From positions 1 through 38,078 of IMG/VR virus record IMGVR_UViG_3300044632_001625: 38,078 nt of DNA. The stretch is one strand, 5' to 3'. A program made the translations under genes and the position numbers. Source of the stretch: a virus. A model generated the notes under the pieces. The model did not search any database, was not told where the DNA came from, and saw nothing but the letters and a program-made list of their open reading frames with translations. Shown here piece by piece: positions 2,363 to 32,546 of the stretch (positions are counted from its first letter, which is position 1; each line of letters starts with the position of its first letter).

Positions 2363-2888
2363 CGGAGTTTTGGCACCCGCAATGCCCGCATGACTTCAAC
2401 GCCGCATCGCTGGCGGTCTTTTTGCCACCTATGAACTTGAAAACCTCCGCTGCCATGTTGGTGCATCCCGAGCAACCAGTAAGATAAACGGATTGATTTA
2501 GCTCGCAGCCAGCGCAAATGGCGGCGCGACGATCCGCCTCGTCCTGAGGCACGCACTCGCCAGCCTCCCACCACGAAGCGACCTTGGCAAAGAACGCCTT
2601 GATGTCCCGCCAGCCGATGAGCCGCTTCTGTCGCAGCACTTCCGGCGCGGCGTCGCTCATCTTCGCGCACGCCTCGTCACGCAGGCTCTCTGGAAGAGCT
2701 TTGCAACAAGCGTCACTATAAACCGCCAGAGGATTCGAGAACGTAAGACCAAGCTGCTTACACCGCGCGTCGTAAAGCTCGTAGCACTGCTCCGCACTAC
2801 CCGCCCTCACGATCTCATTAGTTCCTGGGATCAGCGCGGCGTCGCGCGGGAAGTTCCTGTTGCGCCACCAGTATTCAACGGCGCTCAC
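2274..2888 (-). CDS. Cys-rich zinc-ribbon protein (204 aa)
   Basis: Starts with GTG at 2888, overlapping the stop of the giant gene (GTGA), so it is translationally coupled as the last gene of the leftward structural operon. The N-terminal 130 residues are mostly helical with no known motif. The C-terminal part carries at least three knuckles: CAGCELNQ, TGCSGCTN and SCGHCGCQNS, followed by VIVWAPLDVLV. The pattern fits one or two zinc sites. Similar Cys-knuckle proteins occur in phage genomes beside virion or glycosyltransferase genes, but I cannot name a family. Role unknown; a virion accessory factor is a guess from position. Confidence 0.75.
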   Translation of the reverse strand: MSAVEYWWRNRNFPRDAALIPGTNEIVRAGSAEQCYELYDARCKQLGLTFSNPLAVYSDACCKALPESLRDEACAKMSDAAPEVLRQKRLIGWRDIKAFFAKVASWWEAGECVPQDEADRRAAICAGCELNQSVYLTGCSGCTNMAAEVFKFIGGKKTASDAALKSCGHCGCQNSVIVWAPLDVLVKNETELPPVPAWCWKRLE

Positions 2889-5800
2889 CGACTGTATCTC
2901 CGCTCCTTGGGTGCAGTCTTGTCCCTCGTCACACTCACGCCGACACCGATGGCTTCCTGCAACTTCGCTACGACAGTCTTTGCGAACCCAGCTCGCTCGA
3001 AAAATTCATCGGCACTCCGCCACGCCAACGGCACCGTCAGGTCGCGAGCAATGCTTGGCACGGTTGGCACCTTCCCGTCGTAGTTGCTCCCCGTGTAAAG
3101 GTCTGTCGCCACGCCCACCCACGGCGCAGAAATCGAGCGAATCTCGCGACCGATAGTTGCGTATGATGTGAATGCCCGCTGCTTGTCGGCTTCTTCTTGG
3201 CCTGACAGCATGGCCTGGATGGTTGTGGAGATGCCTTCAATGAGCGCGGCACCTATCCGAGCGAGCTTAACCTCGCCGCCAGTGTAGTCATACTCCATGC
3301 GGGCGTCACTGTCTGTCACCTTCATCTTGAAAAGGCGCTTAGCCTTATCAAGCATATCTTCGTCATCCCCAGTGTCTCCGTAAAAATAGCGCGAGATGGC
3401 TGAAACCACCATCCATCCAGCTATCGCGCGGAACTGCTCCTTGAGTGCTATCTTTCGGATTCGCATAGAGGAATTCCACCTCCAAATGTGATAGCCCGAA
3501 AGGTTCTTCGCCCGCGCTGCGAGGAAATTCGCAGAGTAGAAGACGAATTGCGCCAGCTTTCCGGCACCGGCCTTTAGTCCGCGCCCACGCCCGCTGTTGA
3601 TCATGTCGCCAAGCGCCTCTTTTTCGATTTTCGACATCGGCTTGTCGCGCAGTTCATTGATGCGATAATCAGCCACGTCAGCGGCCAGTTCATTCAGGAA
3701 GGTGGTGAAGGTTCGACTGCTGGCGCGAACGTAGTGACCGAGCAACTTGGGAACAAGTTTAGGCAGCACAAGCAGCGGATTACCGGACAGCTTGATGTCC
3801 GCCCAATCCTCAATGTTGGAACGCACTCCTTCTTCCGCCATGCGATCATGTGCCTCCGCCTCAACGGACGGCATCTGTATCTTCATGGGCTTATAGAGAG
3901 CGTAGTTCGGGCGCAGCTTCCGCTCGGCCTCGTAGCTCACCGCCTGCTTTTGGCTGAAAATTGTGCGGATCGAGCGCCACATCGCCTTTGCCGCCATTAT
4001 TGGATGAGCTTTAACCATGCGTACGGCTTGGCGGGGAGCCGACAAGTCGCCGCTTCCCATGAGTGAGCGTTCAGCGGTAAAGGCAGTCCACATCGCGTCA
4101 GTGAACTTCTCGTAGCCACCACGCCGCTCCTTGATGTAGTGCAGGAGTCGCTTTGCGTAGTTGCTCTTGATCTCCTGCAAGTCCGAGGCGATTCGCACGG
4201 CTTCGGGGTCTTTAGATAGGTCAACTGGCGGCCTTGGCGGACGCTTCTCGAAGTCACTTTTTGCGAGCCGGTCGGTGAGGTCGGCGATTTGTCGCAGCAT
4301 CGCGGCTTTGCGGTTTGCGATCTTGGTCTGCTCGGTTACTCCTGCGGCGTTCTTTGCAGCATTGTAAGCGGCGAGCGCGGCGTCGCGTAACGCGCGGGCT
4401 TGCGCCACGCGCGCCGAGTCAACGGTTGTCGTTTTGCTTTTTGCCGTGAAGTCAGATTCGTTGACTCGCCGCTCGTATTCAGCGGCAGCCGCTTCCAGCG
4501 CACGAACCTTTGCGTCGTCCGGGTCTGTCGCTGGCTTGGCGTCGCGCCGAATCTGCGCGGCGAGTTCCCTCATTGCGGCGATCTCCATGCGCGCATCTTC
4601 CTCAAGCTGTGTAAGCGATTCCTGCGGCTGCCTGCTTGTCGGCTGCTGCTCTCCGGCAAGCATCTGCTCCCACCGCTCCCGCGCCACAAGCGCGGCGTCG
4701 AGTCGCTTTTGCGCGTCACTCAGCGGAGGATTGGCGAGTTCCTTCAAAGCCTGCGTCTCTGCGCGTGCTGCGTCTGCTCTGGCACGGATGACCAGAACTT
4801 CATTTCGCGTCTCCGCCCCCTTCTGGACAGGTCGCGTAAATACTCCGCGCTTCGCTGCCTCCAGTTCAGCCAACGCCTTCTGTTCCGCGCGCTCCGCTGA
4901 CTTGATGGCGGACTTGAGCTTTTGCTCTGGCGTTGCTTCGCGCCGACCAAACACGGCCAAGTGTTCCGCCTCAACTGTCGCAAGTTCGGCCCTCAGTGCC
5001 TCAAGGTTTGGGGATGTTGGAGTGACGCCGCGATTCTTGATGGTGCGCTCACCCTTCGCGATCTCGAAGCGAAGGTCTTTGATGCGGTTGCGCGTGCGCT
5101 TCTCCAGCGCGTCGAGTGCGGACTGTCGGCGAGATTCCGCCGTGCCTTGTGGTGGCGGAATTTTCTTCTTTAGCTCGTTAAGCTGCTGCGCCAACGCGCG
5201 AGCCTGATCCCGCACTGGAACTCGTTGTTGCCCTGTCAGCTTCAAGTAATCGCCAACATCCTCGCCAGCCTGTGAGCGCACGAGCGCGGCCTCGGCATCT
5301 ATAATCTGACGCACGATCAGCGCCTCTTGCCGGATTTGCGATTGCAGCCTCTTGAGCGCGTCCTCCGTGGCGGCCTTGCCCTTGCCGTAGTCTGTCCATA
5401 AATCCAGCAACACGTCATCAGTCGGATTCCCCATGACGGGATCAAGGAATGCGTGCAGCCTGGCCATCACGCCCTTCACGGTCGTAGCCCCGGATTTCAC
5501 GTATTCATTGGCAAGCTGCTTCACGTAGCGGCCCATGTCATCCGGTAGTCCTTCTTCCGCCATTGCCCGGATGCCGTCCTCAATGGATGCGGCGTCTTTC
5601 GTGGCGGCCTGCTGACGGGCCTTCTGCTTGGATGACACCTTCCTTTCGGGCTGGTTGGCGTTGAAATACTTCATCGCCTTGTCCCATGCAGGTTTGAGAT
5701 ACGGACTCACCCATTCGCCAAACTCTGACGCTGTGCTTGCGGCGAAGTTTCCAAAGGACTCGATGCCCTGCGCGATCTTGCCGCGAGCAAACAGGAAAAT

Positions 5801-8800
5801 ATCGCCAAGGATCGTCGGATCAACGCCGACGTTCACCTGCCCCGCGCGGGCACGCAGTCGCTCACCGGCAGCGTTTCCAGCGGACACCAACTCGCTCAAC
5901 TTCTGCTTTGCGTATTCCAGCACGCGGGACGGAATCTTGCTCCACTCCGCAATCTTCGCTTCGGCATTGGCAATCCTTTCAGCGGCCTCGGTGGCTGCTT
6001 TTCTTGCATCCAAATCAGCCTGAGCCTTGGCGATCCTTGTCGCCTCATCCCTGATTCGATCCACTTCCTCTGGCGTCAGGCCGGACTGCTTGGCCTTGCG
6101 CTCCCTCGCTTCCATTGCGGCTAGCGAGAAGTCTTCATTCGCCATAAGTTTGAGCGATTGCAGCGCCGCTCCAGCCTCGCTGCCAGCCATCCCCTTGAGG
6201 ATTTCGGATGCCTGCAATTTCTTCTCGTAATACTGAAATTGGTCAAGAGCGTCACGCTGCTCTTCTTCGCTGAGGTTCGGGTCGCGCGCACGATCTGCTG
6301 CCTCCTGCCGCTTGTTGTGCAGATCAATTTGCTGCGCAAAAACTCCCGCAAATTCCTCATCTGTCAGCACGGTTTTTTCGCCACTGCTGATCTCGTCAAC
6401 CAGTCGGTCTGCCCATTTTGGTTCCGTCTCGAATCGCTTGACGGCGGCATCCCAAAGAACGGGGTTTGCCTTCGCGAATCTCCGCGCCAAAGGCGGTAAT
6501 CCTCGTTTCGCCCGCTGTGCGTCCATGTTGTCGAAACTGCCACCGTATGTTCGCGGGCCGGATTCGCCTGTTTCCTCTCGGTCCGGCGGCTCGGCGTTCA
6601 TGTCTGCGATGTTGATTTCTGGCGGGGTTGCACCCTGCGCGACATTCGATGCTTCCGCCTGAATCTCCGCTTGCCTTTTTGCGATGAGGCTGTCAATCGC
6701 CGCTATCTGCTGCATCTCCTCGACGGTGGGCGGCCTTCCGCTTTTTCGGATGTCTTGCAGGAGCTTGTCCGCGCTCCCTTGCAGCATGGCGACTTCGCGC
6801 TCTTTATCCATGACGGCTTTCTTGGTCGTGGATGTCGCTTCGGGGTTCTCGTCCTTGAGGCTGAACTTTGGTTCCGCCTTCTCAGGAAACACCTTTGACC
6901 AATCCACGGTGCCGTTTTCGCGGACAGCTTCCTTGGTAATGACTCCGATGTGCTCCGGCTTCGGGCGGTACCCTGGCTTGATGCGCGCTGGCTTGGTGCT
7001 GTGGTATTGCACCCACTCTTTCGGGACATACACGGCTGTTTTTCCAACTGAGCCGTAACGTGTGTTCATCGCGTTTGGGAGTGGGTCTTTCTGCGCCGGC
7101 AGAACCCATCCAGTGAAATCCTTGGACGGGTCAATTTCGCCCCCTCGCAGGTTGATATGAATGGAGCCACGCTCGAAGTCCTTCTCGTCCACTACGCTCA
7201 TCTTCGGCCCATCTCCGCGCGCCTCGCTCACGCGCGCCCGCACGTCAGCCGTCACAGCCGGATCGCGGTTGATGACATACATCGTCTCCTTTGGAGTCAG
7301 CACGACGCCAGCCTCGCGTGCTGCGTAGGTCAGTTCACTGCCGGAAAGCGTATTCACGTCAGCCGCCCGCGCCCTCTGCTTCCGCACGGCATCCACGCCG
7401 CGCCGTAGCAGCGCCATCACGTCGTTTTTGCTCCACTGCTTTACGCCGAGCTTGTTCAGCGCGTTGCGGAGCCAGTCCACCACGCGCTGCCAGCGGGTGC
7501 GGTGCTGCGCGGACATCTCCGGGCCTACGCCTTCCATGATCATCGCCAGCGTCTCGCGCACCTGATTTTGCGGCTCGTATCTGCGCTGCACAGCGGCGTA
7601 CTCCGCCTCGAACAGCCGCTTGAGCATGGCGTCCAGTTGAGTCGTCGCTTTCTCGCCAAAGGCTTGCAGTAGCGCGTCCACGCCGCCGTGCCCTGCCGCT
7701 TCGTGCATAAACACCTCGATAGCCTCGCGCGGCTTCTCGATGGCGGCAGCGTTGATGTAAATCTTGCCCTCCGACACAGCGCCGCGGAGGCGGTTCATGT
7801 CTTCAGTGGTGGGCGGACTCTGCCTTTTAATGAGAGCATCCTTCACTGATTCGGGAAGGCCCGACCAAGCATAGGATGCGTATCCTTTGGGGATTCCTTC
7901 TTCCTTTAGAATCTCAGCCCTTCCAAGCGCGTTGGTCTCTTTCCATTTTTTGGCCGCCATCAATTGACGCATGGCATACTTCAATCCCTCTGGATACTGA
8001 CTGCCGTCCGCAATGACCTCATGCGGCATCGCGCCGGCCAGCCGCTCGGCGACGACACGCACAGCGCGCTGCACGGACGCGACAGGAAGGCTGGTTGCAG
8101 GGGCGGTGTCGGCAATCGCGAACGGATCTTCGCTGATCGGCTGATCCTTGTCGAAGATGTCCTTCTGCGGATCGGGCGCATTGAACATATCCACCTCGGG
8201 GCGGATGTCGTCCTTCGCCAGCAGCCTCTTGCTCTGCGCGAGTCGCCAGTCCTGCTCCTTTTGAAGTCGCGCCTTCTCGGCCTCGTCTGTCAATCGCTCG
8301 GACTCAAGCTGCTCAGGCGTTTTCTTTGCGTCACTCTCAACGAGTTCACCTTGATCTTCGCCAGGGCGGAGCTTGGGGGCAACTGGCTCTGGATTGATTT
8401 CCGTGAGTTTGCCGTAAATCACAGCGTCACCGTCCACGTCCTGAATGCCGTATTTCTCGCCATCCTCCAAAGTCACGTCGAATCCAGCCGTCGCAATCAC
8501 TGTCAACTTCTCTCCATTTATCTCCACTACATCGCCGATGGACAGATCGAGAATGTTGATCCGGGTGGTGCCTTTCTTTTTCTTGGCTGAATCCTCGGCG
8601 AAGTCATTGCTCTGTCGCTGCGCGTCATCTTCCATCTCCTGCATGACGCGCCCCTCGTTCTCATTCATCAGTCGCGCCTCGTATGCACCGTGAATCGCGG
8701 AGTGCATTGTGTCGGCCTTTGCGTCGCGGATCAAGTGCGCGTCGAAAAGCATCTGCGCCGCCTCGTCCAGCGAGACGCCTGAACCGCGCTTCGCGATAAT

Positions 8801-11800
8801 CGCGGCATGTAGGCGCGGCGGGAGGTTCAGGCCATCATATTCGCCGCTGATACGCTTACTGACCAGCTTGAAGAAATTCGTTCCATCTACGTCGCGCGTA
8901 ATCTGGCCGCGCTGCTTCATCTGAATATCAAAGGCGGTTCCGCGTGAGCGAAGTTTTCCGATGTTGTTGATGATGTAGTCAATCACGTCCTCGCCGCCGC
9001 CCGGTGCTGGCGGAAGTTCGCGCGCCTTTCGCTTGAAGGTCTTGGGCGCGGCAGGCTTCGCGGCTTCGGTGACGGGCGCGGGGGCGGCGTTCACTTGCGC
9101 GGCCTCCAGCCACTTTGCGTAGTCATGCTCTGCCTTCGTGACTTCAAACAAATTCCCTTCCGAGTTCTCAAGGCGATACTCGGTTTTCTTTCCTGCCTCG
9201 CGCTTGCGCTTCTCGTAAGCGGCCTGCTCTTTGTTGTCCATCCGGTTCATCTGTGTCCCGGTCAAATCCTTCACGGCGTCCACTTGCGCGGAAGTCGGCT
9301 TGAATCCTGCGGCGAGAAGTTGCTTTGCGACCTGTGCGCGAGTGCCTTCATAGACCTTCCCTGCTGTACGCTTTGCTACCTGCTCCATGAGCGTCTTTTT
9401 CAGCTTCCCCGCGGCCAGAGGCGTTGCACCGATTGCGGCGGTGTATTCGTTCACGTCTCGCTCGCGCAGCTCTTTCGCTGCTTCTTCGTCGCGCTCCTTC
9501 TGCGCTTCGCGCTCGACAACGGCGGCACGTTCCTGCTGGCGAGTCCTTTCAGTGTTCGCGTATTCCTCGGCCTCCGCCTTAGTGTCGAAAATACCGTCTC
9601 CGAATCCGCGCTTCTCACCGGACTGCACCATCCACTTCATACCGTCCTTGCGCTCCATCTGGTAAATGGAAAACTGGCCCTCTGTTGCCCTTGCCTCCAC
9701 CGCCTTCTTGCTCGGCCTCTCCACGGGCAGTCCAAGCCGGTCAATGATGCCGACCTTCTCGTTGTCGTAGAGCCAGTCCATGCCGTGCTTCTCCAGCACA
9801 GCGAAGTCCGATTCCGTGGCCTTGGGCTTCACTGCGTTGCCGCGAATCAGCGCCGCCAGCGTGCCGCCCTGCTGCTTGCTGCGGATGTCCGCCCATGAGT
9901 AGCCGAAGATTCCGCCCTCGGACTGTGTGGCGGCGGGGGATGGCGCGGCTGCTGGCGTCCGCGTCTCCGTGATGGCGCGCTTCCCGTCCACCATGTCGGC
10001 GATAGCAACCTTGTGGCCTGCATCCGTCAGCTTCTTGAAGTAGCCTTCCGCCGCGTGTATCGGGATGCCGGACATGGCGACGCCGTTGCGCTTCGTGAGC
10101 GCCACACCCATCGCCTCTGCGGACACGAGCGCGTCGTCGTTGAAGAACTCGTAGAAGTCGCCAAGGCGCACCGCCACAAGGGAGTCCTGCGCCTGCGCTT
10201 TCAGTGCTGTCCAGTCGCGCTGGAGAGGAGTCTGCGGTGCGGGCGCGGGGGGCTTCGCTGCCGGTCGAATCAGCACGAATCGTCCGTCCGTGGATGCGCG
10301 CAGTCCGCGCTTCTCTGCTGTTTCGATGATCTTCGTCAGGTTGTCCCGGTTTGCGTCAGTGACTTCGATATTCAGTTCCTTTCCCGTCCTTTCGACGCCA
10401 TCTAGCATCAAGTCCAAGCGCGTTTTCGCTCCAGTTGGTGCTGGCGTGGGTGCGGGCCGATCTTGCCGCAATGCCATCTGCGCCTGACTCCATCCTTGTG
10501 CGAAAGCATCGTGCAGCTTTTGCTCCTTCGCGGGAACTCCGGGTCGCTGCTCGGGCAGCGGCTCTCCCGGCTTTCCGTTCGCTGCCTCGAATCCTCTGCG
10601 GAACCACGCTTCTTCGGCTTGCGTCTTGAATGACACACGCGGCTTTCCGCCTGTCTTTGTCGGGGCTTTCAGTAATACCGCAATGCGCTCGTCCATTTCG
10701 GCCTGCGTCATCACCCCCGGCGCGGGTGCCTGCGGGGTGGGCGCGGGCTTCGTGTTCTTCTGCGCCAGTTCGATTGCCTCCGCTGGCGTTTTTCCGAGAA
10801 TTGTCTGCCCGCCAACGCTCACGTCTTTCCCGGATGCGTCCACAGGAATGTAGAGCTTTACGCCTTCGCCGCCCATCGAGCGCGGTGCGGGAACTTCGCG
10901 GACTGTTCCGAGCCAGTTCAGTTCGGAAACGGCATCCGCAATGGCCTGCTCCACCGGCTTCGCCGCTGCGGGTGCCTGCGGGGTGGGCGCTGCGGCGGGT
11001 TGCGAGGGTGTGGGTGCAACTACGGCATCTTTTGCAACGGTTGGCGAAGATGATTCTCCTTTGATTGCACCCGCAAGTCTCCACGGGCTGATTCCAGAGA
11101 ATCCGCTTTCGTATGAATAGACCAGTCCGCCGGGAGTGAACGCATACGACGGGCGCGGGTTGCCGTTGAATCGTTTGTCCACAATCACGTATTCCGTGCC
11201 TTGCGGTAGGTCGCCATCAGGAATTAGCGGAACGTCCTTCGGCGCGTCTCCGAAATCCGGCAAGTCCTCAAAGTCTTTCACCACAGACGATCCACCGTCC
11301 TTGCGAATCGCCTTGGCTGCGATGCTGGTAGAAAATGGATTCACCGGCTTCGCCGCCGCCGGGGTTACTGGCTCCGGCGACGGCGCTGCGGGCGCTACTT
11401 CCTTTTGTGGCAGTCGCACTGGCTCATCGGCTTTTTGCACCGAGGGCACGCTTTGGGCTTTTTCATTCTTGGGTTCACCTGCCTTTCGTTGGACGTTTCC
11501 AAATGCGTCATACACGTCGCCTGTTCTTCCGTAGGCCGCGCGCTCTGTAAGCGGGCCTTCGTTGGCCTGCGTGTGCTCGACGGACTTCAACGCCGGCTTA
11601 GCTGGTGACTCGCCTAGTTTCGTCTCCTTTGGGAGTTCCTCCGGGTTCATTCCGGCGAGTTTCCAGTCTTGACGATCTTGCGGAGTGATCGCCTCGCCGT
11701 TTTTCAGCTTTGCCTTAATCTCCTGCGCGCGATGGTACAGCCGTTCCGCATCCTTCTTTATGTCCTCTGCTGTAACAGCGTGATGAATGTCTATTTCCGC

Positions 11801-14605
11801 CTCCCCGGTAATTTTTCTCCAGTCGTTTTCCGCCTCAACCATCTCTATCTCAAGTCGCAGCTTTTCGCCTACGGTCTTCGCGTCTGCGTGCTCGCGACGT
11901 ATTTGCTGATGGTTTCGAGATATTGATTCCAGACGCCTTTCCGCCCACGCGCGTTCTGGCCCCGTAAGCCTCGCGCCCGCTTCTTCTGCGCGATTCTGAA
12001 GTGATCTCCTATCTTTCTGTGAAAGCGGAGTGCGACGCCTCGACATTTCATCGTCAGAAACACGCGCGGTCTTGGCTTCTTCGACTTTACCTGACTCATG
12101 CGCCTCCAGCTTCGTCTTGATGCCGTCCAAGAGTTCCTTTGTGTCAGGCGAGAGGTTCTTTAACTTTTGATCCAGCCAGCGCAGCAGGCCCTTGAAGAAT
12201 CGGTAGGCTGCCTCAGTCAGCGCACGCGGGCCTTGAAGCAGCACGCGAGCGACTTCAAACGCCTTCTGGTTTGTGTCCAGCCCGTCAAACGCCTCTTTTC
12301 CGTATGCTTCCTCCGCTGCGGCAACCGCATCCTTGTCTTTGAGTATGTCGTACAGCTTCGCTCTGTTCTCTGGCGACTCAGATGCGTATTTGTCTGTCGC
12401 GGCGTGAAGCACTTCTTCCGAGACGGCGCGCTTAATCCACTCGGCCCGCTGGCGTGGTGCCATGCGGGCTGCTTGGCGCTCCAGCGCCACGGGGTCGTAT
12501 TCGATGCGTCCCGTGTTGGGGTTGTATCTCAGTCCGGTATCGCCTTCCGGCACCGTCACAAGCGTAAGTTGCGACGGATGACCAAGTGCCGCAAGCTCGT
12601 TGGCGTGCGCAGCAACCGCGCTGTCTATCATCACGATGACAGGGTGAGGCGCGGGAACCGATGATTCAGGAGGTTTCGGCGGCTTTTGTGGTGCCGCCTC
12701 GTCTGCCTTGGCGACATTCTTCCAATACTGCTCGGTGGCCGCTTTTTCGTCCTGTTTTGCAGCGCGGCGATGTGTCTCTGCGAGTGCTTCAGATGCAATA
12801 GCTGACTCAATGAAGCCATCCTTCCTGAAGCGTTTCGCTTGCGCTTCGGCGGCCTCTGCTGCCGCTGTATTGGTGGCGGCGGCACTCTTGCCGGCCATTT
12901 TTGCCATCTCTCGCCTGTGTTGAAATTTGTGGAAAACTCCCATCACTGCGTTTTGCAGCGCGAACGCGGTGAATGTGCCGGGGGCTTCGTCTGCGATTGC
13001 CTTGAAATCTATGGGCTTGTTGTGAACCGCCAAATCGTAAAGCCCTTCCGCGAAAGTGACGGCGGCGGCATCCTTCACTGCCTTTCCGGTCATCGCCATC
13101 AGGATGCCCTTGGCGGGCTTGAGTATCCCCATCGCTCCACCGGCAATGAAGGAACGAACGCCCTCGTCAATCGGGTTCACGTCCTTGTTGCCCTCGACGT
13201 ACCGCTGCTGAACGCCGCTGCTGAATCCTGCGCGCCCCATTGCGACACCGCTCTGCAATGCGCTCTCCCATCTAGCCGCGGCGGTTCCTGGCTCTAGCGA
13301 CACCTTGGCGGCTTGGGCCATCTTGCCGACAGTGGTGAGCGCGGGCGGGGTTTTCTGGAACATTGACACGAGGAACGGCACGAACGATCCGACCTGCGCC
13401 CAACCAGGGTGAGCACGGGCGTTGGCTTCACGTTGCGCCTGATCCACTTGCCCAAAGACCTTGTTCTGCAACCATAGCGCCGCCGATCCGCCGCTGGCCC
13501 CGCCGACCATTGCGGTGGAAACGTCGCCCTTTGACGCAGCCGCGCCAATGGCGGTTCCCGCTGCGGTGCCAAGTGCCGGCAGAATAGCGGAGCCGAACTC
13601 CTTCACAGCCGTCACAAGACCTCCCTGCGCCTTGGGTCGCGAGGCGAACTCCTTGTCCATCTCCACTCCTGACGGAATCAGTCTTGCTGCTTCTTCGGAT
13701 GTCAGAAGCCCCATGCGTTCAGCCGCCATCATCGCCTCTTCGGCCTTACCCTCCTCCGGCTCGATGTTGAGCATTCCATTTGTCCGAACAACTCTGAACG
13801 GCAATTTTCGGCCCTTGGGATTCCTTTCGCTGCTTTGAGTGGATTCCAGCGCAGCAAGTTTTGCGTTTCGGCGGTATGCGGAAGTGGCCTCCTGCTCCGC
13901 TGCCGCGACGCCAGCCGCGTCCGCGCCCTTGCTGAATGCAATATCGCGGGCGGCTAGTTTTGCGGATTCTTCACCAGCTACCGCGCTGCGATACAGCAGA
14001 TCGTCCGCAAGCGAGTCCTTACCCTTGCTTCTGGCGAAATCCTTGGCTGATTTTTTCTCAGCTTCGCTTGCCGTAAGATCATAGCGATCCTTCCAGAATT
14101 CCTCCGCGCTGGGTGTCCAGTCGAGCGGCTGCACGCCGATGGATGCTTTGCCATGCTCGCCATCCAGCTTCATCACGCCAGATCCGCGTGTCTGCGCGCT
14201 CATGCCGCCTGCGACCTCTAGGCTTCGCTTTACGACGCCACTCACTTGTTCCGGCGTGACCTTCTGCCGCTCGGTGAAGACCTGCATGGACTTGTCCGCC
14301 GCAGCCCTGCGACGCTTTTCATCGGCGTCCCTGCTGTTGTGCTCGGTCATCTTCCCCTGAAGAAATGCCGTCGTGCTGTTGTAAAACGAATCCGCTTCGG
14401 CTGCATCCAGTGACGACTCGGCGCTCGCGAAGGCTTCGTCGAAAACCTCCGCAGTGCGATCTAGATACTTCTGGCGAGTCGGCGCGTCCGCATTTTTCCA
14501 GTCGTCGGACGAGAAGAATTGATCCGCTTCGAGGGCCAAACTTTTCAACTCGTCGCGCGGATGCGGAGGCGGCGCGATCTCGGATGCGGCGGTGGCGGTA
14601 GGCAT
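2885..14605 (-). CDS. Giant polyvalent phage protein with MutS-I-like and metallopeptidase-like segments (3906 aa)
   Basis: One uninterrupted frame fills 31% of the window. The architecture is that of phage polyvalent proteins, large multi-domain virion proteins thought to be co-injected with DNA. Visible parts: Gly/Ala-rich hydrophobic stretch (about 335-380); EEVLHA segment (730-735) resembling a degenerate metallopeptidase; Pro/Ala linkers (about 1070-1300 and 1450); a MutS domain I-like module (about 1460-1548) with RLGDFYEFF, LTKRNG and a GIPIHAAEGYFKKL segment; a beta-barrel-like segment (about 2015-2056; LSIGDVVEINGEKLTV); a metallopeptidase-type motif HEAAGH (H2302, E2303, H2307); long charged coiled coils (about 2690-3450); and a C-terminal region (3500-3906) with amphipathic segments such as FVFYSANFLAARAKNL. 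Function is inferred: anti-host or DNA-protecting activities carried in the virion. Start is ATG at 14605, without an SD sequence. Confidence 0.92.
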   Translation of the reverse strand: MPTATAASEIAPPPHPRDELKSLALEADQFFSSDDWKNADAPTRQKYLDRTAEVFDEAFASAESSLDAAEADSFYNSTTAFLQGKMTEHNSRDADEKRRRAAADKSMQVFTERQKVTPEQVSGVVKRSLEVAGGMSAQTRGSGVMKLDGEHGKASIGVQPLDWTPSAEEFWKDRYDLTASEAEKKSAKDFARSKGKDSLADDLLYRSAVAGEESAKLAARDIAFSKGADAAGVAAAEQEATSAYRRNAKLAALESTQSSERNPKGRKLPFRVVRTNGMLNIEPEEGKAEEAMMAAERMGLLTSEEAARLIPSGVEMDKEFASRPKAQGGLVTAVKEFGSAILPALGTAAGTAIGAAASKGDVSTAMVGGASGGSAALWLQNKVFGQVDQAQREANARAHPGWAQVGSFVPFLVSMFQKTPPALTTVGKMAQAAKVSLEPGTAAARWESALQSGVAMGRAGFSSGVQQRYVEGNKDVNPIDEGVRSFIAGGAMGILKPAKGILMAMTGKAVKDAAAVTFAEGLYDLAVHNKPIDFKAIADEAPGTFTAFALQNAVMGVFHKFQHRREMAKMAGKSAAATNTAAAEAAEAQAKRFRKDGFIESAIASEALAETHRRAAKQDEKAATEQYWKNVAKADEAAPQKPPKPPESSVPAPHPVIVMIDSAVAAHANELAALGHPSQLTLVTVPEGDTGLRYNPNTGRIEYDPVALERQAARMAPRQRAEWIKRAVSEEVLHAATDKYASESPENRAKLYDILKDKDAVAAAEEAYGKEAFDGLDTNQKAFEVARVLLQGPRALTEAAYRFFKGLLRWLDQKLKNLSPDTKELLDGIKTKLEAHESGKVEEAKTARVSDDEMSRRRTPLSQKDRRSLQNRAEEAGARLTGPERAWAERRLESISRNHQQIRREHADAKTVGEKLRLEIEMVEAENDWRKITGEAEIDIHHAVTAEDIKKDAERLYHRAQEIKAKLKNGEAITPQDRQDWKLAGMNPEELPKETKLGESPAKPALKSVEHTQANEGPLTERAAYGRTGDVYDAFGNVQRKAGEPKNEKAQSVPSVQKADEPVRLPQKEVAPAAPSPEPVTPAAAKPVNPFSTSIAAKAIRKDGGSSVVKDFEDLPDFGDAPKDVPLIPDGDLPQGTEYVIVDKRFNGNPRPSYAFTPGGLVYSYESGFSGISPWRLAGAIKGESSSPTVAKDAVVAPTPSQPAAAPTPQAPAAAKPVEQAIADAVSELNWLGTVREVPAPRSMGGEGVKLYIPVDASGKDVSVGGQTILGKTPAEAIELAQKNTKPAPTPQAPAPGVMTQAEMDERIAVLLKAPTKTGGKPRVSFKTQAEEAWFRRGFEAANGKPGEPLPEQRPGVPAKEQKLHDAFAQGWSQAQMALRQDRPAPTPAPTGAKTRLDLMLDGVERTGKELNIEVTDANRDNLTKIIETAEKRGLRASTDGRFVLIRPAAKPPAPAPQTPLQRDWTALKAQAQDSLVAVRLGDFYEFFNDDALVSAEAMGVALTKRNGVAMSGIPIHAAEGYFKKLTDAGHKVAIADMVDGKRAITETRTPAAAPSPAATQSEGGIFGYSWADIRSKQQGGTLAALIRGNAVKPKATESDFAVLEKHGMDWLYDNEKVGIIDRLGLPVERPSKKAVEARATEGQFSIYQMERKDGMKWMVQSGEKRGFGDGIFDTKAEAEEYANTERTRQQERAAVVEREAQKERDEEAAKELRERDVNEYTAAIGATPLAAGKLKKTLMEQVAKRTAGKVYEGTRAQVAKQLLAAGFKPTSAQVDAVKDLTGTQMNRMDNKEQAAYEKRKREAGKKTEYRLENSEGNLFEVTKAEHDYAKWLEAAQVNAAPAPVTEAAKPAAPKTFKRKARELPPAPGGGEDVIDYIINNIGKLRSRGTAFDIQMKQRGQITRDVDGTNFFKLVSKRISGEYDGLNLPPRLHAAIIAKRGSGVSLDEAAQMLFDAHLIRDAKADTMHSAIHGAYEARLMNENEGRVMQEMEDDAQRQSNDFAEDSAKKKKGTTRINILDLSIGDVVEINGEKLTVIATAGFDVTLEDGEKYGIQDVDGDAVIYGKLTEINPEPVAPKLRPGEDQGELVESDAKKTPEQLESERLTDEAEKARLQKEQDWRLAQSKRLLAKDDIRPEVDMFNAPDPQKDIFDKDQPISEDPFAIADTAPATSLPVASVQRAVRVVAERLAGAMPHEVIADGSQYPEGLKYAMRQLMAAKKWKETNALGRAEILKEEGIPKGYASYAWSGLPESVKDALIKRQSPPTTEDMNRLRGAVSEGKIYINAAAIEKPREAIEVFMHEAAGHGGVDALLQAFGEKATTQLDAMLKRLFEAEYAAVQRRYEPQNQVRETLAMIMEGVGPEMSAQHRTRWQRVVDWLRNALNKLGVKQWSKNDVMALLRRGVDAVRKQRARAADVNTLSGSELTYAAREAGVVLTPKETMYVINRDPAVTADVRARVSEARGDGPKMSVVDEKDFERGSIHINLRGGEIDPSKDFTGWVLPAQKDPLPNAMNTRYGSVGKTAVYVPKEWVQYHSTKPARIKPGYRPKPEHIGVITKEAVRENGTVDWSKVFPEKAEPKFSLKDENPEATSTTKKAVMDKEREVAMLQGSADKLLQDIRKSGRPPTVEEMQQIAAIDSLIAKRQAEIQAEASNVAQGATPPEINIADMNAEPPDREETGESGPRTYGGSFDNMDAQRAKRGLPPLARRFAKANPVLWDAAVKRFETEPKWADRLVDEISSGEKTVLTDEEFAGVFAQQIDLHNKRQEAADRARDPNLSEEEQRDALDQFQYYEKKLQASEILKGMAGSEAGAALQSLKLMANEDFSLAAMEARERKAKQSGLTPEEVDRIRDEATRIAKAQADLDARKAATEAAERIANAEAKIAEWSKIPSRVLEYAKQKLSELVSAGNAAGERLRARAGQVNVGVDPTILGDIFLFARGKIAQGIESFGNFAASTASEFGEWVSPYLKPAWDKAMKYFNANQPERKVSSKQKARQQAATKDAASIEDGIRAMAEEGLPDDMGRYVKQLANEYVKSGATTVKGVMARLHAFLDPVMGNPTDDVLLDLWTDYGKGKAATEDALKRLQSQIRQEALIVRQIIDAEAALVRSQAGEDVGDYLKLTGQQRVPVRDQARALAQQLNELKKKIPPPQGTAESRRQSALDALEKRTRNRIKDLRFEIAKGERTIKNRGVTPTSPNLEALRAELATVEAEHLAVFGRREATPEQKLKSAIKSAERAEQKALAELEAAKRGVFTRPVQKGAETRNEVLVIRARADAARAETQALKELANPPLSDAQKRLDAALVARERWEQMLAGEQQPTSRQPQESLTQLEEDARMEIAAMRELAAQIRRDAKPATDPDDAKVRALEAAAAEYERRVNESDFTAKSKTTTVDSARVAQARALRDAALAAYNAAKNAAGVTEQTKIANRKAAMLRQIADLTDRLAKSDFEKRPPRPPVDLSKDPEAVRIASDLQEIKSNYAKRLLHYIKERRGGYEKFTDAMWTAFTAERSLMGSGDLSAPRQAVRMVKAHPIMAAKAMWRSIRTIFSQKQAVSYEAERKLRPNYALYKPMKIQMPSVEAEAHDRMAEEGVRSNIEDWADIKLSGNPLLVLPKLVPKLLGHYVRASSRTFTTFLNELAADVADYRINELRDKPMSKIEKEALGDMINSGRGRGLKAGAGKLAQFVFYSANFLAARAKNLSGYHIWRWNSSMRIRKIALKEQFRAIAGWMVVSAISRYFYGDTGDDEDMLDKAKRLFKMKVTDSDARMEYDYTGGEVKLARIGAALIEGISTTIQAMLSGQEEADKQRAFTSYATIGREIRSISAPWVGVATDLYTGSNYDGKVPTVPSIARDLTVPLAWRSADEFFERAGFAKTVVAKLQEAIGVGVSVTRDKTAPKERRYSR

Positions 14606-28985: not shown

Positions 28986-29011
28986 TCCAGCAACCAACAA
29001 CCCGACAACCC

Positions 29012-29962
29012 ATGAAAACACAAACGAAAATTGACGACCTGAAAAAGCACATCGCAGCCGCCGCCGCACGTCACAGGGCGGACAGCGATCTTCACATCCT
29101 CACGGCGGCCCTTCCTGCACAGGGGGCGGAATGCTGCCACAAACTGCTAGATCGCTACATGGCGAGCAACAACGCAGCCGCCGACGCAGCCGCCCCGCTC
29201 GCGAAACTCCCAACGGCACGCCGCGATCGCGCCGCAGCCACCGCAAAGGCCGCGCTGGAGCTTGGCCGCAGGGCCGCGCTTTCTGGCATATCGTACAGCG
29301 GGGAAACAGACTTCCGTGCAACGTGGTCTGATTCCGCGAACCCCTACGCCGACACCTACACCGACAAGGGCGATCGGTATTCCCGGAAATGCACCTACCG
29401 GAAAACCGACGCGGATCACGTCGTCCACGTCTCGCCGGAGTGGTCGCCGTTGCTCGTCGAACGCGAGGAACTGCGCACGCTCTCGGACCGTGACGGCCTG
29501 CCTCTCATCGGGATCGCCGAGGACGGGCGATGCGCCTGGGTGAAGAAAAAAGGGAAAGGCATCACTTCCGAAGTCGGCTGGATCGCCTTTTTCGGCTCGA
29601 TCTGCTACCACTCCACGATCTCACAATCGGACGCTGATAAAGGGCTCGCCCGCAAGCTCGCCACCGCTCGTCGCGAGTGGGCGGACGAACAGATCAGACA
29701 GCTTGACCGCGTGAAATCGGCAAAAGAGGAACGCCGCGCACGATTGGTCGCCCGCTTGTGCGGTTCCATCGTCGCCACCGTCGCGGACGCCCGCGCTTTG
29801 GGCTTTTGCCCGCCGGGGATCGAGCAATTCCAAGCGCAGCACGGGATCGGCTCATCCGCCCCGCTCCCGGCGCTCATCCGCACGGGCAACCCATCCGCAA
29901 TCCGGCTCGCGCTCGCCATCGCGCGCCGCGTGAGCAGACACCCCGAAGCGGTCGCCGCGTAG
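29012..29962 (+). CDS. ORFan-block hypothetical protein (316 aa)
   Basis: The largest ORFan-block gene, with an exact leader copy ending 3 bases before the ATG. The N-terminal 90 residues are helical and Ala-rich; the middle has an aromatic-rich beta segment near 96-160; the C-terminal half is a basic coiled coil (KLATARREWADEQIRQL, KEERRARLVARLCGS). It contains one copy of the dispersed ACGTCACAGGGC (29068-29079). No enzymatic motif recognised. Confidence 0.72.
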   Translation: MKTQTKIDDLKKHIAAAAARHRADSDLHILTAALPAQGAECCHKLLDRYMASNNAAADAAAPLAKLPTARRDRAAATAKAALELGRRAALSGISYSGETDFRATWSDSANPYADTYTDKGDRYSRKCTYRKTDADHVVHVSPEWSPLLVEREELRTLSDRDGLPLIGIAEDGRCAWVKKKGKGITSEVGWIAFFGSICYHSTISQSDADKGLARKLATARREWADEQIRQLDRVKSAKEERRARLVARLCGSIVATVADARALGFCPPGIEQFQAQHGIGSSAPLPALIRTGNPSAIRLALAIARRVSRHPEAVAA

Positions 29963-30041
29963 TCTCGCCACTGCCCCGGCAGCGTTCCACCCGCAGCCGG
30001 AGCAAGGCGCAATTCCGCGCAATCCAACAACCCGACAACCC

Positions 30042-30230
30042 ATGAAATCACACGACCTGAACTCCCTCACGCTGTCCATCGCGAACGCCGGCAACCTCAC
30101 CTTTGCCGAGGCGCGCGCGGAACTGTCCCGCCGGGGCGCATTCGTGCGCCATGCGAACCGACGCCGACGCGAGATTGACCGCATTCGTGCGGAGCAAGCC
30201 CGCGCAACGGCGGACAGGATCAGCCCCTAG
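30042..30230 (+). CDS. Small basic protein (62 aa)
   Basis: Exact leader motif 3 bases before the ATG. A helix (SLTLSIANAGNLTF) is followed by an Arg-rich segment (RRGAFVRHANRRRREIDRIR), so nucleic-acid binding is possible. The IANAG string recurs in the 79-aa protein at 32780. No family recognised. Confidence 0.65.
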   Translation: MKSHDLNSLTLSIANAGNLTFAEARAELSRRGAFVRHANRRRREIDRIRAEQARATADRISP

Positions 30231-30256
30231 CACAGCAACCCACAACCCGACAAACC

Positions 30257-30481
30257 ATGAAAAACATCACCACACCACCACCCGCGCCGGCTCAGTCCGT
30301 CGCCACGTCACAGGGCACGCGCGCTCTAACAATGCACTGCACCGAGTCTCCCGACGGCTACGGCTGGGAAGCGTGGGTGACAGACGCAGACGGTGACACA
30401 ATCGGCGAAGCGTGGGGAACCGAACCGCATGAAGCGCGTGATTTCGCGATGCTGGATGCGAAACGCGGACTGGAGGTTTAA
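30257..30481 (+). CDS. ORFan-block hypothetical protein (74 aa)
   Basis: Exact leader motif before the ATG. The Pro-rich N-terminus contains the TSQG encoded by the dispersed 12-mer. The rest (TESPDGYGWEAWVTDADG, then EAWGTEPHEARDFAM) is an acidic beta-hairpin-like fold with a GxxW pattern seen in small phage ORFs. Stops 3 bases before the next start. Confidence 0.65.
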   Translation: MKNITTPPPAPAQSVATSQGTRALTMHCTESPDGYGWEAWVTDADGDTIGEAWGTEPHEARDFAMLDAKRGLEV

Positions 30482-30484
30482 CCC

Positions 30485-30907
30485 ATGAACATCACACTTA
30501 TCACCGCCAAAAACGGCCTTTCGTTCGAGCTTGTCCCCGAGCCCGTCCGCAACGCCGATCTCGGTCCTCAAATTGTCGTCCACGACGGCGATTTCCGCAT
30601 TGCCTCCTACTGCCTCTCCACCTTTCGCGAGAACGTCGCGAAAAAACAGGGCGTGTGCGTCACGGCTGGCAAATTCGAGAAATACCGCGCCATCGAGTCC
30701 GACACGCTCGCCGAGTTGGTCGCGGAAGCTGATGCCCTGCTTTCCGGCACACCGCCGCCGCCCGCGTCACAGGGCGCGCCGGAACTGCTCGCCGCGCTGG
30801 AAGAAAGCGTGATGGCGATGCGGTCGAGCTTCCAATCGCTCCCGATCATCGCTGCGATCAAGATCGCCCGCGCTGCCATTCGTAAAGCGAAAGGAGGTGC
30901 CAAGTGA
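30485..30907 (+). CDS. ORFan-block hypothetical protein (140 aa)
   Basis: Follows the previous gene by 3 bases and overlaps the next start by four (GTGA at 30904-30907). Residues 1-80 are beta-rich (ITLITAKNGLSFELVPEP); after a Pro-rich linker with ASQG (from the dispersed repeat) comes a C-terminal helix (ELLAALEESVMAMRSSF). No family recognised. Confidence 0.7.
   Translation: MNITLITAKNGLSFELVPEPVRNADLGPQIVVHDGDFRIASYCLSTFRENVAKKQGVCVTAGKFEKYRAIESDTLAELVAEADALLSGTPPPPASQGAPELLAALEESVMAMRSSFQSLPIIAAIKIARAAIRKAKGGAK
30890..30899 (+). promoter_or_regulatory. Canonical Shine-Dalgarno (AAAGGAGGTG)
   Basis: GGAGG lies 6 bases before the GTG at 30904, inside the end of gene 30485. It is the only strong SD seen among the plus-strand genes and shows that the host ribosome is expected to recognise SD sequences. 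Confidence 0.8.
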
Positions 30908-31098
30908 GCGCCGCAACCGCAAAGCCCCGCGAGCCAATGATCCCCTATTGCACTTCCGATATGGAGTGGGAAGCCTGCAAGCGTCTCGCCGCTGAATTAT
31001 GGGCATCGGGCCGGTACAGCGCCGTTACGACACGCCGCCGCGAGCCTGAAGGCACTAAGCAATTCGGCAGAATCTACGTGCGGAGGGTGCAGCCATGA
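30904..31098 (+). CDS. ORFan-block hypothetical protein (64 aa)
   Basis: GTG start with a strong SD (30890-30899) and a GTGA overlap; its stop overlaps the next ATG (ATGA at 31095). Small and basic (RYSAVTTRRREPEGTKQF). Its start region SAATAKPREP resembles the N-terminus of the next protein (KPATAKPAP). Function unknown. Confidence 0.7.
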   Translation: MSAATAKPREPMIPYCTSDMEWEACKRLAAELWASGRYSAVTTRRREPEGTKQFGRIYVRRVQP

Positions 31099-31490
31099 AG
31101 CCCGCCACCGCAAAGCCCGCGCCGGCCATTCCGCGCGAGAATACGATCCACGGCACGCGCCTGTTGGTCTGGCGCAACATACTCAGCGACGAACCGACCG
31201 CGCGCCTACTTTGGGCCACGATCTTTCCCGCCGGCTGGGACTGGGACGAAACCGGCACCACGGCGAGCCTGTACGATTGGAAATGGGACAAAGACGCCGG
31301 CACGATCTGCGTCCGCGGAGAATTGCGCCGCAGCAGCGGAAACAGCCAAGGCATCAACGGCACGTTTCCCGCGCAGATGGAAGAAGCGACACTGAAAGCG
31401 CCAGGGCGGAATTTCCAGTGGAACCCGCACGGCTGTCAAGGTCGCGAATGGCGCAACATCAAGACCGGCGAGACAAGGGGGGCGCAATGA
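31095..31490 (+). CDS. ORFan-block hypothetical protein (131 aa)
   Basis: Overlaps both neighbours by four bases. Rich in Trp (LLWATIFPAGWDWDETG, ASLYDWKWDKD), probably a compact beta fold. The N-terminus KPATAKPAPAIP is near-identical at DNA level over 14 bases to the start of the next gene. No motif recognised. Confidence 0.7.
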   Translation: MKPATAKPAPAIPRENTIHGTRLLVWRNILSDEPTARLLWATIFPAGWDWDETGTTASLYDWKWDKDAGTICVRGELRRSSGNSQGINGTFPAQMEEATLKAPGRNFQWNPHGCQGREWRNIKTGETRGAQ

Positions 31491-32185
31491 AGCCCGCCAC
31501 GACGAAAGCGCACATTTTGCGCGCAAAGCTGGCCGAACTAGTCGCCCGCGGAGTGGACGGCGAGAGAGACAGCGCCGCCCGCAAGCTCGCGAGGCTGGAG
31601 GCCGCGTTCGACTTCACCGCGCCGAACCCGGACGGGGGCGATCTGTTCGTGAACACGCCCGGAGCATCGAGCGTTCGCCGTGGACAGTACGCGCGGCCAC
31701 TGGACGAGGTGTTCACAGACTCGGAGATCGCCGTGTTCGTCAAATTCGCCATCCTCGCAGCGTACAAGGTGGATGGCACGATCCGCGACAATCGGGACGG
31801 CACGTTCACCGTGAGCGTCGAGGCGGAGATCGCGAGCATGAAGACCCTGAACTTCATCGGGAAAACGCTCCACGACGCCTTCCGCGCCTTGCTCGCCGCA
31901 TTCCTCAAGTTGCCTGGCGCAAGCGAGCGGGATTCCCGGATGTTCATCCGCGCGGTTTATGACGGCGCGCTGAACGACGAGAAGAAACCCGGCGAGAAGT
32001 TGCCGGAGCGGTCGCCGACGAAAACAGCCAAGGGGCGGAAACGCTCGCTTGTGAACGCGCCGGCACTTGCGCTCCACCCTTACACAATAGGACTTGAAAT
32101 GGGCCGCCGCGTGCGCCTGTGCGTCCCCGTCGAGTCCATCACTGGCGAACTGGCGGAGGCCGAGCGGATCGCACGTCTGAACTGA
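31487..32185 (+). CDS. ORFan-block hypothetical protein upstream of the ribozyme (232 aa)
   Basis: Starts in an ATGA overlap. Helical N-terminus (KAHILRAKLAELVARGVDGE); central alpha/beta segment with TDSEIAVFVKFAILAAYKVD and a DGTFTVSVEAE strand; a basic linker near 165-185; the C-terminus ends in an IARLN stretch. Its TGA (32183-32185) is immediately followed by the first base of a hammerhead ribozyme, so translation termination and RNA cleavage may interact. No family recognised. Confidence 0.75.
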   Translation: MKPATTKAHILRAKLAELVARGVDGERDSAARKLARLEAAFDFTAPNPDGGDLFVNTPGASSVRRGQYARPLDEVFTDSEIAVFVKFAILAAYKVDGTIRDNRDGTFTVSVEAEIASMKTLNFIGKTLHDAFRALLAAFLKLPGASERDSRMFIRAVYDGALNDEKKPGEKLPERSPTKTAKGRKRSLVNAPALALHPYTIGLEMGRRVRLCVPVESITGELAEAERIARLN

Positions 32186-32237
32186 GGACGAAACGGGCGC
32201 GCAGCCCGTCGCCGGTAATGCCCGGCCTGATGAGTCC
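32186..32237 (+). ncRNA. Type II hammerhead ribozyme
   Basis: Every core element of a hammerhead is present in type II (stem-II-open) order. GGAC (32186-32189), stem II 3' strand; GAAA (32190-32193), core; stem III CGGGC (32194-32198), loop GCGCA, GCCCG (32204-32208); U then C (32209-32210), completing the GUC cleavage triplet; stem I GCCGG (32211-32215), loop TAATGC, CCGGC (32222-32226); CUGAUGA core (32227-32233); GUCC (32234-32237), stem II 5' strand pairing with GGAC. All stems pair perfectly, and the A-U pair next to stem III is also formed. Cleavage is expected after C32210, separating the mRNA of the 232-aa gene from that of the 94-aa gene (ATG 32262). Type II hammerheads are known mainly from bacterial, phage and metagenomic DNA. 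Confidence 0.9.
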
Positions 32238-32261
32238 ACCACAAACCAACAACCCGACAAA

Positions 32262-32546
32262 ATGAACGAAATCCCGATCGCATCCATCACCATCGCCCCC
32301 GGCTCCACCATTCACAAGACGATCCTCAACACCGGCCAGCCCGGATTCGGCATCGCCACCGTCGTAACACTGGCGGACGGGCGAGAAGTCGCTTCCTTTG
32401 AGTCATCGAGGCGGAAGCGCGATCTTCTGGCATGGGTCACGTCACAGGGCGAGAAGGCGAAATCCGGAAACATGAAAGCCCTGCTCGACGGCGAAAAATA
32501 CTACGGCACATCCACCGCCTATCGCATCGGCCCCGTCGCAGCCTGA
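32262..32546 (+). CDS. ORFan-block hypothetical protein downstream of the ribozyme (94 aa)
   Basis: The leader motif ends one base before the ATG. After ribozyme cleavage the mRNA would start at 32211, a 51-base leader with stem I at its 5' end. Beta-rich N-terminus (PIASITIAPGSTIHKTIL), then a helical, charged part containing TSQGEKAKSGNMKALL (with the dispersed repeat). Function unknown. Confidence 0.7.
   Translation: MNEIPIASITIAPGSTIHKTILNTGQPGFGIATVVTLADGREVASFESSRRKRDLLAWVTSQGEKAKSGNMKALLDGEKYYGTSTAYRIGPVAA

What the first reader, a model, noticed from the sequence alone, without database searches (positions are those of the whole stretch)
32186..32237. Type II hammerhead ribozyme between two phage genes
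All catalytic-core positions (CUGAUGA, GAAA, the GUC cleavage triplet) and three perfectly pairing stems are in the stem-II-open order, in a 76-base gap between two plus-strand phage genes. Hammerheads are established self-cleaving RNAs and type II forms are known from bacterial and phage DNA; here it should cut after C32210 and split a polycistronic mRNA. The gene context (ORFan block, ACAACCCGACAA leader after it) appears undescribed.
Basis: partly seen in the sequence, partly recalled or inferred. Interest (0 to 1): 0.92.

Follow-up and report, generated by a model that had tools for sequence, protein, structure and literature searches.

The report
Self-cutting RNA between phage genes
Right after the stop codon of one phage gene lies a 52-base RNA sequence built like a hammerhead ribozyme, which should cut the shared messenger RNA between that gene and the next; the kind was known, but this sub-form is common in phages, falls below the standard database cut-off, and repeatedly sits directly on stop codons.

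Summary
Window 32186-32237 (+) is a complete type II (stem-II-open) hammerhead: all core bases present, stems II/III/I of 4/6/5 bp, predicted cut C32210|G32211. Rfam's type II model finds exactly this stretch but below its gathering score (25.8 vs 37 bits, E 0.0038). A covariance model I built from 14 unrelated phage/prophage hammerheads gives 57.8 bits, E 4.8e-14; 400 shuffled windows give none. In that set the ribozyme is fused to the upstream stop codon: 54% start within -2..+1 nt of an ORF stop, against 1.2% at random positions; here it is TGA|GGAC. Likely role: splitting a polycistronic mRNA so that each product ends in a hairpin. Cleavage itself is untested. The kind is known (Perreault et al. 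2011), so this is a new member; its sub-form, stop-codon fusion and a recurrent core-complementary tail (absent here) are the newer parts.

The parts
31487..32185 (+). upstream gene, 232 aa, no known family; its TGA stop (32183-32185) abuts the ribozyme
   Evidence: no Pfam match; relatives in 2 viral contigs
32186..32237 (+). type II hammerhead ribozyme
32186..32189 (+). stem II 5' strand GGAC
   Evidence: pairs covary in the family
32190..32193 (+). core GAAA (A15.1 is 32193, pairs with U 32209)
32193..32209 (+). stem-loop III, 6 bp, loop GCGCA (GUGCA in the relative)
32210..32211 (+). predicted cleavage site, C32210|G32211 (GUC triplet)
   Evidence: position fixed by the hammerhead core; cleavage not tested
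32211..32226 (+). stem-loop I, 5 bp, with family loop motif G[UAAUG]C
32227..32233 (+). core CUGAUGA
32234..32237 (+). stem II 3' strand GUCC
32185..32185 (+). A flanking stem II on its 5' side, also last base of the stop codon; conserved A in the sub-form
32238..32238 (+). A flanking stem II on its 3' side, conserved in the sub-form
32249..32260 (+). repeated gene leader ACAACCCGACAA (one of five copies)
32262..32546 (+). downstream gene, 94 aa, no known family

Best explanation
A type II hammerhead ribozyme, placed immediately after a stop codon, that cuts a polycistronic phage mRNA between two genes. Shown by sequence: the complete motif, its family, and its fusion to the stop codon. Inferred: after transcription it folds and cuts C32210|G32211. 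Because in the type II form stems I and III are both closed hairpins, the upstream message would end 25 nt after its stop codon in the stem III hairpin with a 2',3'-cyclic phosphate, and the downstream message would start with 5'-OH directly in the stem I hairpin, followed by a mostly open A/C-rich leader and the start codon at 32262. Most likely effect: separate stability and expression of the two genes, each new end protected by a hairpin. A further, weaker inference: a ribosome ending translation at the abutting stop covers stem II and the GAAA and so delays cutting until it leaves. The confidence given is for an active type II hammerhead; for the mRNA-separating role I would say 0.5.
For: Perfect core and three stems. 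Independent model R1, built without the window: 57.8 bits, E 4.8e-14. Of 176 exact core-pattern matches found without any stem requirement, 158 have both hairpins, 0.42 expected. Covariation: 99% of cells paired, 13 of 16 pairs with double changes, none of the slid controls close. A 95%-identical relative keeps all paired and core bases, with one change in loop III, while the stop before it changes TGA to TAG. Upstream ORF stop within -2..+1 nt in 54% of 127 representatives vs 1.2% at random positions; deposited gene calls agree in Streptomyces phages Puginator and Janus. No mixed strands in 32 multi-copy loci. Related hammerheads in prophage arrays were cut in vitro, and one array in E. coli (PMC3088659).
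Against: No cleavage data for this sequence. Below Rfam's cut-off. [quoted passage not shown] With 20 or more upstream bases the folding program gives stem II a probability under 0.01, because CGUCU in the upstream gene pairs with GGACG; but that pairing is broken in the relative, and half of the whole sub-form also scores under 0.05 in its native context, so the program, which ignores tertiary contacts, is a poor judge here. Only one copy in this contig and in its relative. No transcript data show that the two genes share an mRNA.
Confidence: 0.8

Rival explanations
1. A true hammerhead by descent, but slow or nearly inactive here: the shortened stem I strand and the upstream hairpin keep it from cutting at a useful rate.
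For: 5' strand of stem I one base short of the family; competing hairpin CGUCU/GGACG in native context; 4 of 18 consensus hammerheads tested in 2011 did not cut (PMC3088659).
Against: Family loop G[UNNNG]C kept; similarly bulged stem I occurs in other copies (L009, L056); competing hairpin not conserved in the relative; all core and stem bases kept in the relative.
Confidence: 0.15
2. The element acts only as structured RNA at the gene end (a 3' hairpin or attenuator protecting or terminating the upstream message), and catalysis is not used.
For: Hairpins sit right after the stop codon; two stable stem-loops.
Against: The invariant core would not be needed for a hairpin; the terminator-like scan does not call this site.
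Confidence: 0.04
3. Chance resemblance.
For: Simple motif; Rfam score below cut-off.
Against: 0 in 400 shuffled windows; E 4.8e-14 with an independent model; kept in a relative.
Confidence: 0.01

Closest known systems
Type II hammerhead ribozymes of bacteria and (pro)phages (Perreault et al. 2011, PMC3088659; Rfam RF02276 Hammerhead_II)
   Same: Core, topology, GUC cleavage triplet, placement between phage genes, several copies per phage in related contigs.
   Different: Those usually join loop I to the 3' tail by a pseudoknot; the GGAC/GUCC sub-form does not (10 of 96 vs 7.9 expected, against 26 of 51 vs 10.9 in the others) and mostly falls below Rfam's cut-off.
Haloarchaeal virus HF1/HF2 hammerhead 13 nt before a helicase gene (PMC3088659)
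   Same: Virus hammerhead just before a gene; a mapped 5' RNA end lies within three nucleotides of its cleavage site.
   Different: Variant core, halophile host.
Type I and type III hammerheads of viroids, satellites and retrozymes (PMC6155905, PMC4918200)
   Same: Same catalytic core.
   Different: Other strand order; serve rolling-circle or retrotransposon RNA, not phage mRNA.

Membership tests
Hammerhead ribozyme | core CUGAUGA, GAAA and UH cleavage triplet | tested here: met
   CUGAUGA 32227-32233, GAAA 32190-32193, GUC 32208-32210
Hammerhead ribozyme | three helices I, II, III around the core | tested here: met
   family covariation
Hammerhead ribozyme | self-cleavage giving 2',3'-cyclic phosphate and 5'-OH | not testable with these tools
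   needs transcription and gel or RNA-seq
Type II hammerhead | stem II open, stems I and III closed by loops | tested here: met
Rfam RF02276 Hammerhead_II | score at or above gathering cut-off (37 bits) | tested here: not met
   25.8 bits, full-length match at E 0.0038; 0 hits at cut-off. A database cut-off, not a structural requirement
Pseudoknotted type II form (Perreault 2011) | loop I pairs with the 3' tail over four or more bases | tested here: not met
   loop UAAUGC has no such complement in the tail ACCACAAACC (by eye); the sub-form as a whole shows no enrichment
GGAC/GUCC sub-form defined here (model R1) | GGAC/GUCC stem II, flanking A...A, loop I G[U...G]C, R1 match | tested here: met
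   57.8 bits, E 4.8e-14; A32185 and A32238; G[UAAUG]C

The most novel reading that the evidence does not exclude
Stop-codon-fused type II hammerheads are a widespread phage device that makes mRNA cutting depend on translation of the upstream gene: the terminating ribosome blocks the ribozyme, and its release lets it cut, giving hairpin-ended single-gene messages. In part of the sub-form (not in the window) an AUCAG tail then pairs with the core (CUGAU) to hold it off.
Probability: 0.2. Interest if true: 0.75.

Novelty: new member of a known kind. Interest (0 to 1): 0.45.

Why it matters
The role of hammerheads in prokaryotes and their phages is called an open question in the literature (PMC6155905). 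The comparison here gives that question handles: a sub-form that standard annotation mostly misses, a precise tie to stop codons, and cultivable Streptomyces phages (Alvy on S. lividans JI 1326, Puginator, Janus, phiRKBJ001, Yara) with 6-9 matches each to the type II model, not annotated as ribozymes in the stretches I read, where RNA ends and mutants can be examined.

Tried and rejected
Rfam at gathering cut-off: nothing, explained above. Ribozyme as a trait of the flanking genes: the downstream protein has one relative, in the near-identical contig; a 35%-identical upstream-protein relative has no CUGAUGA in the stretch read after its gene, so it is not tied to that gene family. Upstream hairpin as a conserved off-switch: broken in the relative. 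Loop I/tail pseudoknot in the sub-form: no enrichment. AUCAG tail as the window's mechanism: the window lacks it. Leader ACAACCCGACAA as part of the ribozyme: it precedes other genes without ribozymes. Naming the phage: 7.5 kb around the site finds one weak match, a Brevundimonas phage; the DnaB-like helicase matches many phages, under 30% identity in the best rows; host not identified. Literature search for stop-codon-linked hammerheads found nothing relevant in the held library, which lacks most subscription papers. Counts of type I and III in the fetched loci (1 and 2 against 159 type II) are biased because the loci were fetched with a type II pattern.

Full report
The observation. Bases 32186-32237 on the + strand read GGAC-GAA-ACGGGC(GCGCA)GCCCGU-C-GCCGG(UAAUGC)CCGGC-CUGAUGA-GUCC. 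This is the order stem II 5' strand, GAAA, hairpin III, cleavage C, hairpin I, CUGAUGA, stem II 3' strand, that is, a type II hammerhead. The predicted cut is C32210|G32211. It begins on the base after the TGA stop of a 232-aa gene (31487-32185) and ends 24 nt before the ATG of a 94-aa gene (32262-32546). Neither protein matches Pfam.

Is it more than chance? None of 400 shuffled windows contains such a motif. Rfam's Hammerhead_II model aligns end to end with it but scores 25.8 bits, under its cut-off of 37. I built a covariance model (R1) from 14 hammerheads of other phages and prophages, none from this window or its relative; it scores the window at 57.8 bits, E 4.8e-14.

Why Rfam misses it. 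Of 176 exact matches, 158 have both hairpins, against 0.42 expected from shuffled middles, and the stems covary strongly (that alignment was fitted to the model, but the pattern scan behind one search was not). Most belong to a sub-form: stem II GGAC/GUCC, an A on each side of it, and a short loop I that opens with U (92 of 96; 57 of 96 G[U...G]C). The loop-I/3'-tail pseudoknot of the published type II consensus is not enriched in it (10 of 96, 7.9 expected) but is in the other copies (26 of 51, 10.9 expected). Rfam at its cut-off found none of the 38 R1 matches in eight contigs but did find pseudoknotted copies in Streptomyces phages. The window belongs to the sub-form, with stem I one base short on its 5' side, leaving 5 bp plus a bulged C or a 6-nt loop.

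Conservation. A 95%-identical contig (IMGVR_UViG_3300044638_005822) keeps the ribozyme with one change, in loop III, and has TAG instead of TGA as the abutting stop. At that divergence few changes are expected in 52 bases, so this is consistent with, not proof of, constraint.

Placement. Over 127 representatives, 54% start within -2 to +1 nt of the end of an upstream ORF of at least 60 aa; random positions in the same loci give 1.2%. Deposited annotation in phages Puginator and Janus shows the same. The conserved A before GGAC is often the last A of TAA or TGA, or the A of TAG. Distances to the next start are far more spread. In 32 multi-copy loci no copy lies on the other strand; 20 of 40 viral records hold two or more copies, up to 11. 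These loci were fetched because they hold copies, so this is not a frequency among phages.

How it most likely works. The ribozyme cuts a shared mRNA between two genes. In the type II form both hairpins are closed, so each product would carry a hairpin at its new end: stem III at the 3' end of the upstream message, stem I at the 5' end of the downstream one. This follows from the anatomy; that it stabilises the products is inference. The abutting stop codon means that a terminating ribosome would sit on stem II and the GAAA, which suggests cutting waits for the ribosome; this is a hypothesis.

Caveats. No cleavage was tested. In native context the folding program prefers an upstream hairpin (CGUCU/GGACG) over stem II, but this pairing is lost in the relative and a low stem II probability is usual for the sub-form (median 0.03). 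Whether the two genes share a transcript is not shown; the sigma-70-like and terminator-like scans do no better than shuffles.

Relation to known work. Perreault et al. 2011 described type II hammerheads, their clusters flanking genes in prophages, activity of tested arrays in vitro and of one in E. coli, and proposed mRNA processing. The window is therefore a new member of a known kind. The pseudoknot-free sub-form as a group, its near-absence at Rfam's cut-off, the stop-codon fusion and the AUCAG tail were not found in the papers I could read; the 2011 supplementary alignments were not available to me, so I cannot claim that the sub-form was unseen.

The tail. In 22 of 128 representatives with a GAC/GUC stem II, the core bases CUGAU have a complement of at least 5 nt (AUCAG) in the bases just after stem II. 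The 16-mer CTGATGAGTCCATCAG occurs 93 times in the loci then held and 87 of these carry a full hammerhead, 49 distinct. The tail lowers the predicted stem II probability from 0.65 with shuffled tails to 0.05. It could hold the spent core after cutting or restrain the ribozyme. The window has no such tail.

Noticed in passing
window 28691, 28997, 30027, 30242, 32249 (+): The 12-mer ACAACCCGACAA stands a few bases before the ATG of five + strand genes and nowhere on the - strand; CATCCCGACA variants precede two more genes. Similar leaders (CAACAACCCGACAA...ATGAA) occur three times in the relative, L160. Some neighbouring genes use Shine-Dalgarno-like leaders instead.
   Followed up: partly
window 28992-31108 vs L123 1621-4014: The alignment with the relative is a mosaic whose block borders (28992, 30020, 30270) fall near these leader repeats, as if genes were exchanged there.
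   Followed up: no
L003, L011, L013, L025, L070 and others: Tail AUCAG right after GUCC, complementary to the ribozyme core CUGAU; 87 of 93 occurrences of CTGATGAGTCCATCAG carry a full hammerhead.
   Followed up: partly
L144-L148 (Streptomyces phages Alvy, phiRKBJ001, Puginator, Janus, Yara): 6-9 type II hammerhead matches per genome, all on one strand, none annotated in the stretches read; Alvy gene 84 (25 codons with stop) overlaps one and is probably not a gene.
   Followed up: partly
window 2885-14605 (-): One open frame of 3906 aa takes nearly a third of the contig; not examined.
   Followed up: no
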